From Clostridia bacterium (GTDB taxonomy: Bacteria; Bacillota; Clostridia; Christensenellales; Borkfalkiaceae), in NCBI GenBank assembly GCA_017466825.1, contig JAFTTJ010000025.1, positions 1 through 39,304 of the forward strand: a stretch of 39,304 nt of DNA. The letters run 5' to 3'. Numbering within the stretch: the first letter of the stretch is position 1; the number at the start of each line of letters is the position of its first letter. Under the pieces are notes generated by a model. The model saw only the letters and a list, made by a program, of their open reading frames with translations. It did no database searches and was not told where the DNA came from. Made by a program: the position numbers and the translations under genes. Of this stretch, positions 18,854-19,868 are shown piece by piece.

Positions 18854-18912
18854 TAGGGGCGACGGAGACGGGAAACCTGTCGCCGTCGCAAAAGAAAAAA
18901 GGTAGCCGTTTA
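18854..18912. repeat. Left part of interrupted tRNA-flank duplication
   Basis: These 59 bp are identical to 19715-19773, including the GCGACGG/CCGTCGC hairpin and the left half of the tRNA terminator. The unit resumes at 19580-19622, which is identical to 19771-19813. The 667 bp between are foreign to the repeat. The remaining part of 18771-18853 shows nothing I can name. Confidence 0.9.
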
Positions 18913-18946
18913 GTGCGTCAGTAATAGGGATTATTACTGACGCACT

Positions 18947-19123
18947 AGTTATATTTGCCTATCGGCAAGTTATATTGCTTTCGCAGTTATATTTTGCTAC
19001 GCAAAGTTATATTTACCCACAGGGTAAGTTGTGGCAAATATAATATAACTTTGACTGCAAGTCAAAATCTAACTTTTAGACTTACTCTAAAAATATAACT
19101 GTTTGCTAGCAAACAATATCACT
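18947..19123 (+). repeat. Array of seven hairpins with inverted spacers
   Basis: Seven short hairpins (18955-18968, 18976-18985, 18993-19005, 19013-19027, 19050-19066, 19074-19092, 19100-19115) have different stem sequences but are joined by a fixed 9-bp spacer. The first four spacers read AGTTATATT (18947, 18968, 18985, 19005). The next four read AATATAACT or one-base variants (19042, 19066, 19092, 19115), the reverse complement. The spacers can therefore pair across the array into one branched structure. Variable stems with constant spacers mean that structure, not sequence, is conserved. Confidence 0.85.
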
Positions 19124-19151
19124 TTACTTAAAACTTGATTTATGCTATAAT
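19123..19151 (+). promoter_or_regulatory. Promoter of the four-helix-bundle gene
   Basis: TTTACT (19123-19128), 17-bp spacer, TATAAT (19146-19151) with TGC before it (extended -10). Six bases separate the -10 box from ATG 19158, so the transcript would be leaderless. Confidence 0.6.
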
Positions 19152-19157
19152 TAACTT

Positions 19158-19511
19158 ATGAGTGAAAGCATTTTAAGAGAAAAAGCAAAAGAGTTTGCTA
19201 AAAACATTGTATTCATTACAAGAGAAATTAAAGCCAACAATAAAGAAGGTGTTTTAACTAATCAACTTTTACGTTCGGGAACAAGTATTGGCGCAAATAT
19301 CCACGAAGCGCAATACGCTCAAGGAACGGCTGATTTTATTTCAAAACTTGAAATAGCATTAAAAGAGTGCTTTGAAAGTGAATATTGGTTAGAATTACTT
19401 TTTGAAACAGGATATTTAGAAGAAGCTCAATACAAAAAACTTAATAACGATTGTGGTGTTATAAGAAAAATGTTAATTTCATCGTGCAAAACACTAAAAG
19501 AGAAAAAATAA
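19158..19511 (+). CDS. Four-helix-bundle protein (23S rRNA-IVP family)
   Basis: The 117-residue protein matches the four-helix-bundle / 23S rRNA intervening-sequence protein family. Family features seen are LLRSGTSIGANIHEAQ, FISKLEIALKECFESEYWLELL and a C-terminal helix carrying the IRKMLISSCKTL segment. In some bacteria such proteins are encoded inside intervening sequences of 23S rRNA genes. A related fold is the Avd protein of diversity-generating retroelements. Here it is the only gene of the 667-bp element. No ribosome site precedes the ATG, and the promoter position predicts a leaderless mRNA. The function is unknown; binding the element's own structured RNA is an attractive inference. 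Confidence 0.9.
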   Translation: MSESILREKAKEFAKNIVFITREIKANNKEGVLTNQLLRSGTSIGANIHEAQYAQGTADFISKLEIALKECFESEYWLELLFETGYLEEAQYKKLNNDCGVIRKMLISSCKTLKEKK

Positions 19512-19515
19512 TCGA

Positions 19516-19544
19516 AACTCGACTTGTAAAAAGTCGAGTTTTAT
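19516..19544 (+). terminator. Terminator of the four-helix-bundle gene
   Basis: AACTCGACTT (19516-19525) pairs with AAGTCGAGTT (19531-19540), followed by TTAT. The 10-bp perfect stem begins 5 nt after the stop codon. Confidence 0.8.
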
Positions 19545-19714
19545 AAAATATTCAATTTAAATCCCTATGGGAAACGCCCTTAAGACTACCTTTTTTGTTT
19601 TTGGAGCTGGTGATCAGACTTGTAAGGAGAGCAACGCTCGACGGAATAGCGATTTTGACCGAGTAAGATAAAGTGAGCATTTTGGAAAATCGCGTCACTG
19701 ACGACGCGACACGC

Positions 19715-19813
19715 TAGGGGCGACGGAGACGGGAAACCTGTCGCCGTCGCAAAAGAAAAAAGGTAGCCGTTTAAGACTACCTTTTTTGTTTTTGGAGCTG
19801 GTGATCAGACTTG
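19715..19813. repeat. Intact copy of the 99-bp tRNA-flank repeat
   Basis: This copy contains a hairpin-forming flank, the tRNA terminator and the last 21 nt of the tRNA-Thr gene. The other copy is split between 18854-18912 and 19580-19622. Duplication of a tRNA 3' end is typical of integration sites. The 92 bp between the copies (19623-19714) show only a CGCGTC/GACGCG hairpin and no gene. Confidence 0.9.
19756..19787. terminator. Bidirectional terminator after tRNA-Thr
   Basis: GGTAG (19762-19766) pairs with CTACC (19777-19781). It is preceded by an A-run and followed by a T-run, so it can act in both directions; for the tRNA it acts on the minus strand. Confidence 0.7.
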
Positions 19814-19868
19814 AACTGACGACCTGCTGATTACGAATCAGCTGCTCTACCGACTGAGCCACACCAGC
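19793..19868 (-). tRNA. tRNA-Thr (CGT)
   Basis: The 76-nt gene has an encoded CCA. The acceptor stem is GCTGGTG with CACCAGC, the D-loop contains AGTCGGTAGA, the anticodon stem GCTGA/TCAGC encloses TTCGTAA with anticodon CGT, and the T-arm loop is TTCAAGT. Its 3' 21 nt are duplicated at 19602-19622. Threonine ACG codons would be read by this tRNA. Confidence 0.95.

What the first reader, a model, noticed from the sequence alone, without database searches (positions are those of the whole stretch)
18913..19579. 667-bp mobile element carrying a hairpin array and an IVP-family gene
Comparing the split repeat with its intact copy at 19715-19813 fixes both ends. TTA occurs on both sides. The ends are 20-bp inverted repeats (14/20), with GnGCGT tips and an identical ATAGGGATT placed exactly 11 nt in from each end. 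The cargo is one four-helix-bundle gene of the 23S rRNA-IVP type plus a structured region, with no transposase. I know of no named class of element with this make-up. IVP genes are known from 23S rRNA intervening sequences, so an element next to a tRNA is of interest.
Basis: partly seen in the sequence, partly recalled or inferred. Interest (0 to 1): 0.85.

Follow-up and report, generated by a model that had tools for sequence, protein, structure and literature searches.

The report
Hairpin-loop mobile element carrying IVP gene
A small piece of mobile DNA that has no jumping enzyme of its own sits in the hairpin loop that ends a tRNA gene, and the protein gene it carries belongs to a family that in several bacterial phyla lies next to arrays of short repeats and sometimes inside loops of RNA hairpins, which may tie together several old puzzles.

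Summary
An intact copy of the target beside the split one fixes a 667-bp insert in the loop of a tRNA-Thr terminator. It belongs to a real family: the exact terminal motif GNGCGTN5ATAGGGATT occurs 54 times in 32 of 151 genomes of the bacterial family, the reversed pattern once. Twenty elements with both ends (237-2193 bp) lie between complementary terminator arms; mismatched flanks match in 11 of 380. Ten have IVP, 17 the array, three neither. No recombinase shares these ends in 78 loci tested. A fixed 3-bp duplication is not supported (3 of 20); a shared TT is commoner.

The larger finding concerns the gene. In 22 plasmid/phage loci from several phyla, IVP genes are flanked by tandem 7-mers with their complement across the gene in 15, against 1 of 27 distant neighbour genes. 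Among 29 IVP loci from evenly drawn genomes, at least five lie in 23S rRNA and two in RNase P RNA. Ten paper searches found no general link between IVP and such repeats; one paper notes heptamers in a single intervening sequence. Movement and IVP function are inferred, not shown.

The parts
18854..18912 (.). left part of the interrupted target copy, with the A-rich terminator arm 18890-18905 and TTA at 18910-18912
   Evidence: 100% identical to 19715-19773; arm pairs with 19586-19601, 16 nt, 94%
18913..18932 (+). left terminal inverted repeat GTGCGTCAGTAATAGGGATT
   Evidence: exact family motif; same left end beside TTA in relatives
18911..18947 (+). left-end hairpin, 16-bp perfect stem, 5-nt loop, made of the terminal repeat and its own complement
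   Evidence: (I1)
18947..19123 (+). array of hairpins separated by AGTTATATT (left half) and AATATAACT (right half)
   Evidence: 70 of 78 scored named IVP loci have at least 4 such linkers within 300 nt upstream, 0 of 138 control windows do; pair counts
19135..19151 (+). promoter-like sequence (TTGATT ... TATAAT) between array and gene, read by eye
   Evidence: sequence; alignment; not tested
19158..19511 (+). IVP (S23, four-helix-bundle) gene, 117 aa
   Evidence: PDB relative 2rld_A, 1.2e-31
19515..19541 (+). hairpin AAACTCGACTT..AAGTCGAGTTT after the gene, also found beside right ends of elements with other genes
19560..19579 (-). right terminal inverted repeat (reversed: GGGCGTTTCCCATAGGGATT)
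19580..19622 (.). right part of the interrupted target copy, with the other terminator arm 19586-19601
   Evidence: 100% identical to 19771-19813
19715..19813 (.). intact (empty) copy of the target: terminator of tRNA-Thr plus the tRNA 3' end
19793..19868 (-). tRNA-Thr(CGT), owner of the terminator

Best explanation
The insert is a transposase-less mobile element, moved in trans by an enzyme not yet identified, that enters the loop of an intrinsic terminator hairpin. Its terminal repeats GNGCGTN5ATAGGGATT define a family of small elements, some with an array and IVP, some with the array alone, some with another single gene. The window copy carries IVP with its hairpin array, a module far more widespread than these ends. 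The most likely role of the IVP protein is to bind its own short-repeat or hairpin array, as an oligomer, and so help the element fold and engage hairpin targets. Shown: the insert, its exact ends, the family, terminator-arm flanks, the folded array, the IVP-repeat association in several phyla, IVP insertions in 23S and RNase P RNA genes. Inferred: movement in trans, recognition of the hairpin loop by the moving machinery, binding of the array by IVP. That S23 proteins form pentameric rings is taken from PMC4990558 (passage), not tested here.
For: Exact target copy beside the occupied one. Same ends at unrelated places: 54 exact terminal motifs in 32 of 151 family genomes, 1 for the reversed control. 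Twenty elements, the window included, with stem score at least 12 between their outer flanks; mismatched flanks reach it in 11 of 380 (the finder had demanded a score of 8.5, so the control matters). Of these 20, 10 have IVP, 17 the array, 3 neither (most were found by similarity to the array, so these are not rates). IVP-repeat link: named loci 70 of 78 against 0 of 138 control windows; plasmid/phage loci 15 of 22 for both tandem and inverted 7-mers against 1 of 27; phylum loci 22 of 29 for period 7 or inverted repeat against 4 of 57 displaced controls. RNA-gene insertions: 5 loci in 23S rRNA, 2 in RNase P RNA; the one RNase P case aligned has the insert in a terminal loop after model position 136, which I take to be P12 (recalled).
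Against: No recombinase with these ends was found: 30 Y1, 18 IS110 and 30 serine-recombinase loci, none with the ends or the array. Eighteen of the 32 genomes with the ends have no detectable IVP, and three elements have neither IVP nor array, so neither is shown to be needed. The loop preference may in part be survivorship. Nobody has shown that IVP binds the array. The linker-free test is weaker: 88 of 155 IVP loci against 11 of 278 controls.
Confidence: 0.5

Rival explanations
1. An ordinary non-autonomous TIR element (MITE with passenger) of an unrecognised transposase that prefers palindromes; the IVP module is only cargo and plays no part in movement.
For: The same ends bound elements with other genes and neither IVP nor array (3 of 20; genes); 18 of 32 genomes with the ends lack IVP; outer and inner conserved blocks look like transposase binding sites; a shared TT would fit a 2-bp duplication.
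Against: No transposase with these ends in the loci examined. IVP modules in other Clostridia also sit in or directly after terminator-like hairpins, and some IVP loci lie in RNA genes, so the target preference goes with IVP as well as with these ends.
Confidence: 0.33
2. The element moves through RNA: the folded array is copied by a reverse transcriptase acting in trans, with IVP as its partner, as Avd is for diversity-generating retroelements (recalled).
For: Targets are RNA hairpins. IVP is on the sense strand of the host RNA in 7 of 7 rRNA and RNase P cases, two of them near-identical, and on the strand of the preceding tRNA or tmRNA in 16 of 16 loci where one was found, among 20 loci mostly picked by eye.
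Against: In the window the IVP gene is antisense to the tRNA whose terminator is interrupted, and both ends are DNA-type inverted repeats. No reverse transcriptase was searched for.
Confidence: 0.08
3. IVP plus array is a regulatory, defence or addiction module, and its repeats and hairpins serve expression, not movement.
For: On plasmids some IVP genes stand between defence genes: hsdS/hsdR, drmD/pglX, cas2/cas1. The array lies upstream of a promoter-like sequence.
Against: No PADLOC match. The neighbours differ from case to case, which looks like insertion into gaps of operons, while the repeats recur.
Confidence: 0.07
4. Assembly artefact or chance: a misjoined repeat in a draft genome.
For: The genome is a draft in 39 contigs, 83.6% complete, and the target is duplicated within 1 kb.
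Against: Elements up to 94% identical stand at other sites in other genomes.
Confidence: 0.01

Closest known systems
23S rRNA intervening sequences (IVS) with S23p/IVP gene
   Same: Same protein family; insertion in a hairpin; inverted flanking sequences. For one IVS, heptameric repeats directly upstream of the ORF, replacement of tetraloops and an older mobile-element idea are described (PMC4990558, passages read). Four of the five 23S loci found here have inverted repeats with z above 9, the fifth (L345, a fragment) does not.
   Different: The window element sits in a transcription terminator, has its own 20-bp ends, places the array upstream of the gene instead of on both sides, and uses 9-nt linkers with hairpins instead of tandem heptamers.
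MITEs / non-autonomous TIR elements, some with passenger genes
   Same: Short, terminal inverted repeats, no transposase, several copies at unrelated sites.
   Different: No autonomous parent found; terminator-loop target; no consistent target duplication; varied single genes carried.
Integron gene cassettes
   Same: Small mobile units with conserved ends that often hold one gene.
   Different: No integrase or attC was tested for; targets are scattered terminators, not one attI site.
IS200/IS605 and REP/RAYT elements
   Same: A hairpin at one end, no clear target duplication, a conserved short sequence on the left (TTA in 16 of 20).
   Different: True terminal inverted repeats; no Y1 locus with these ends among 30; no Y1 match in the own genome.
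Heptanucleotide short tandem repeats (STRR) of cyanobacteria and others
   Same: Seven-base units as found around IVP genes in cyanobacterial plasmids. STRR within cyanobacterial RNase P RNA genes is the subject of Vioque 1997, seen here only as a reference-list title.
   Different: Passages read in PMC4679880 and PMC4692102 do not mention IVP/S23; the window array is not heptameric.

Membership tests
23S rRNA intervening sequence element | IVP/S23 gene | tested here: met
   Pfam 1.5e-28
23S rRNA intervening sequence element | location in a 23S rRNA helix | tested here: not met
   only the tRNA matches Rfam in the window; the insert is in a terminator
23S rRNA intervening sequence element | insertion in a hairpin loop | tested here: met
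   arms 18890-18905 and 19586-19601
23S rRNA intervening sequence element | removal from the transcript by RNase III | not testable with these tools
   needs RNA work
MITE (non-autonomous TIR element) | terminal inverted repeats | tested here: met
   14 of 20; family motif
MITE (non-autonomous TIR element) | target-site duplication of fixed length | tested here: inconclusive
   triplets equal in 3 of 20; right flank starts TT in 16 of 20
MITE (non-autonomous TIR element) | autonomous parent with the same ends | tested here: inconclusive
   none in 78 loci of three recombinase families; other families not searched
IS200/IS605 | Y1 transposase with the same ends | tested here: inconclusive
   0 of 30 loci; the list of matches was longer
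IS110/IS1111 | DEDD transposase with the same ends | tested here: inconclusive
   0 of 18 loci, all that were listed, within 1.5 kb
Integron cassette | attC site and integrase | not tested
   no search was run
Diversity-generating retroelement accessory protein (Avd) | reverse transcriptase and template repeat nearby | not tested
   no search for reverse transcriptase was run

The most novel reading that the evidence does not exclude
IVP/S23 proteins are the partner proteins of short-repeat arrays throughout bacteria, and IVP genes with their arrays form one class of transposase-less mobile elements that enter hairpin loops: terminators in Clostridia, 23S rRNA helices (the known intervening sequences) and a loop of RNase P RNA. 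Free-standing heptamer repeats in cyanobacteria and other bacteria would be their gene-less remains, as the array-only elements of 237-361 bp are in Clostridia.
Probability: 0.4. Interest if true: 0.9.

Novelty: new variant of a known kind. Interest (0 to 1): 0.8.

Why it matters
The function of the S23/IVP family, the origin of 23S rRNA intervening sequences and the origin of heptameric repeats in bacteria have been separate questions. The data join them: IVP genes carry short-repeat arrays in several phyla, and some lie inside structured RNA genes. That gives one testable idea: IVP binds its repeat array and the element enters hairpin loops. The family of terminator-loop elements with varied genes is also a route of gene gain at places where insertion may do little harm.

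Tried and rejected
A strict TTA duplication was rejected as the general rule. Y1, IS110 and serine recombinases as owners of the ends found no support in 30, 18 and 30 loci. The Y1 and serine loci are only the best-scoring part of longer lists and reach about 1.5 kb on each side, so this is not exhaustive; DDE and tyrosine recombinases and reverse transcriptases were not searched. The viral collection gave 36 stretches with the terminal motif; I judged them likely chance without computing it and did not follow them. No viral contig encoded a relative by tblastn, although two unannotated phage records match IVP and one was fetched. All ten paper searches found no paper stating a general link between IVP and short repeats; only open-licence papers are held. 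PMC10910872 names 23S rRNA IVP in a figure legend on CRISPR adaptation modules; it was otherwise only searched for terms.

Error corrected: genome loci come in contig orientation, so the minus-strand IVP loci of the phylum sample were read on the wrong strand. One search repeats this with the right strand and replaces those numbers (either sign in 22 of 29, earlier 23 of 29). A first impression that some rRNA and RNase P insertions were antisense was wrong for the same reason. One search has the same fault and is replaced.

Results against the reading: of 29 phylum loci 7 show neither sign, and of 26 family loci 14 show neither AGTTATATT linkers nor heptamers (controls 0 of 47). Of those 14, twelve were printed and show, by eye, arrays with other linkers; L363 and L366 were not looked at. 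Three family loci (L351, L372, L374) had flanks too short. The linker-free exact test gives 88 of 155. In the pair counts helix 1 is paired in only 74% of cells, four rows having another left-end hairpin, and the further-pair-types measure does not exceed shuffles. For first hairpins of other Clostridia a 9-nt complement of the left flank was found downstream in 10 of 29, some perhaps by chance. L040 was left out of the array counts because its match is cut at the contig start, L025 because its flank is too short. Of the plasmid and phage hits near-identical records and one phage record (H22) were not fetched.

Full report
What is in the window. A 99-nt stretch with the terminator and 3' end of tRNA-Thr(CGT) is present twice: intact at 19715-19813 and split at 18854-18912 plus 19580-19622. 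Both parts are 100% identical to the intact copy and overlap by TTA. The insert is therefore 18913-19579. It lies in the loop of the terminator: arms 18890-18905 and 19586-19601 pair over 16 nt at 94%. The ends agree at 14 of 20 positions. The insert holds a left-end hairpin, an array of small hairpins separated by AGTTATATT and then AATATAACT, an IVP gene and a hairpin after the gene. The array region is much more stable than shuffles as RNA or DNA. In 12 aligned relatives 7 pairs show changes on both sides, 0 of 500 shuffles do as well, and slid versions pair at 31-54% of cells against 92%; the measure of further pair types does not exceed shuffles.

The element family. The own genome has one IVP gene and a second, IVP-less element with the same kind of left end in the loop of another terminator (L002). 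DNA similarity to the element was found in 67 of 151 genomes of the bacterial family, part of it covering only the right end or part of the gene. The exact terminal motif occurs 54 times in 32 of 151 genomes, the reversed pattern once. A boundary finder over all loci then held gave 27 flank pairs. Without three second views of the same elements 24 remain; 20, the window included, have a stem score of at least 12, and 11 of 380 mismatched flank pairs reach that. These 20 are 237-2193 bp long. Because the finder required a stem score of 8.5, this is not a rate of loop insertion; of 28 left ends looked at one by one, some gave no right arm in the stretch held. All 20 have a T-run on the right and 18 an A-run on the left, as intrinsic terminators do. 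Ten of the 20 have IVP, 17 the array, three neither (L119, L126, L146); most were found by similarity to the array, so these are not rates. Elements stand behind trx, rpsR and ssb genes, judged by eye from reading frames. At trx and rpsR sites of several other genomes a complete terminator can be read by eye, with diverged letters. The window gives the only letter-exact empty site.

Ends and target. The left triplet is TTA in 16 of 20, the right flank begins with TT in 16 of 20, and both triplets agree in 3 of 20. A fixed TTA duplication is thus not the rule. A shared TT, as a 2-bp duplication or a recombination core, or no duplication at all, fit better.

Cargo and mover. Elements with these ends but without IVP include array-only copies and ones with another reading frame that looks like a methyltransferase, an acetyltransferase or an ATPase, or is of unknown kind (names by eye, no family search). 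I saw no transposase in the frames printed. Of loci with Y1, IS110 and serine recombinases in the same 151 genomes, 30, 18 and 30 were examined and none has the ends or the array; the same scan marks 24 of 30 loci of the set. Genomes with the motif have IVP more often than others (14 of 32 against 26 of 119, Fisher p 0.022), but 18 of 32 have none. IVP is therefore not shown to be the mover.

IVP and short repeats in Clostridia. A protein search gave 80 named loci, chosen by similarity to the window protein and so not an unbiased sample. Of 78 that could be scored, 70 have at least 4 linkers of the AGTTATATT type within 300 nt upstream, against 0 of 138 control windows; 58 of 72 have a hairpin of at least 7 bp ending within 6 nt of the first linker. 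In many, for instance Ruminococcus bromii (L048) and Sporobacter termitidis (L084), the array begins right after a complete terminator-like hairpin. Of 20 loci, mostly picked because they looked so, 15 have a tRNA gene and one a tmRNA gene in the held stretch, each on the strand of the IVP gene; not all of these genes adjoin the array. In another group the first hairpin follows an A-run and one arm, as in the window (by eye; a partner arm was found in 10 of 29).

Beyond Clostridia. Twenty-two plasmid or phage loci (cyanobacteria, Chloroflexota, Bacteroidota, Spirochaetota, one Bacillota, one phage) were fetched. Flanks show tandem 7-mers in 18 of 22, inverted 7-mers across the gene in 16 of 22 and both in 15 of 22; distant neighbour genes show 3, 2 and 1 of 27. 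Neighbours whose flanks come near the IVP flanks were counted apart (tandem 14 and inverted 1 of 20). Exact repeats occur at period 7 (641), 14 (488) and 21 (341) and at most 9 times at any other period from 3 to 20. An approximate test gives 20 of 22 against 4 of 44 displaced controls. Of 199 genomes drawn evenly over the phylum, 35 have IVP; of the 29 loci returned, 22 show period 7 or an inverted repeat and 18 the inverted repeat, against 4 and 0 of 57 displaced controls. In the window's own bacterial family, of 26 loci 8 have AGTTATATT linkers and 4 have heptamers, controls 0 of 47 for the latter; twelve of the other 14 were read by eye and have the same plan with other linkers such as AATGATG or GTGAAAT. 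A test that needs no linker but demands exact 6-mers gives 88 of 155 IVP loci against 11 of 278 controls.

RNA genes as hosts. Of the 29 phylum loci I gave the Rfam search the seven that looked like RNA genes by eye: five lie inside 23S rRNA and two, from one genus, inside RNase P RNA, so 7 of 29 is a lower bound. The RNase P case that was aligned has an insert of about 400 nt after model position 136, in a terminal loop I take to be P12 (recalled), with units such as GAAGTTG on one side and their complement on the other. In all seven the gene is on the sense strand of the RNA. Four of the five 23S loci have strong inverted repeats, the fragment L345 has not.

Literature. PMC4990558 (passages read) describes an intervening sequence in helix 45, heptameric repeats directly before its S23p frame, tetraloops replaced by such insertions, and the older idea that the frame serves mobility. 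PMC4679880 (passages and one section) speculates that a repeat-binding protein could be the mobile part of heptamer repeats. PMC4692102 (passages) reports heptamers in Xanthomonas and Nostoc. In what I read none links IVP with short repeats in general, and the searches named under Tried and rejected found none; most subscription papers are not held.

Judgement. The element, its ends, its family and its terminator-loop position are established by sequence. The IVP-repeat association in several phyla is strong and, as far as I could search, not described in general. That IVP binds the repeats and takes part in movement is my best inference, at about even odds.

Noticed in passing
window 18854-19813: The tRNA-Thr terminator and 3' tRNA end are duplicated with about 92 nt of other sequence between the copies (19623-19714), which could be the remains of an older integration at the tRNA end.
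   Followed up: no
L335 and L337, 1229-2003 (minus strand): RNase P RNA genes interrupted by an IVP gene with repeats on both sides; the two genomes are of one genus and only L335 was aligned.
   Followed up: partly
L296, L300, L304, L314: IVP genes stand between genes of defence systems on plasmids (hsdS/hsdR, drmD/pglX, cas2/cas1), as if inserted in operon gaps.
   Followed up: no
L119, L126, L146: Elements with the window's ends but neither IVP nor array, each with another single gene, that is a cassette-like family with varied cargo.
   Followed up: partly
L355, L358-L361, L364, L365, L367, L368, L370, L371, L373: Arrays of the same plan with other linkers (AATGATG, GTGAAAT, ATGAATTG and others), several after tRNA genes and one (L370) after a tmRNA gene; linker sequence seems to be a lineage mark.
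   Followed up: partly
L200, L202, L203, L204: One identical terminal repeat GTGCGTCTTTCATAGGGATT in four genomes of two genera, beside reading frames of unknown function; a possible separate branch of the element family.
   Followed up: no
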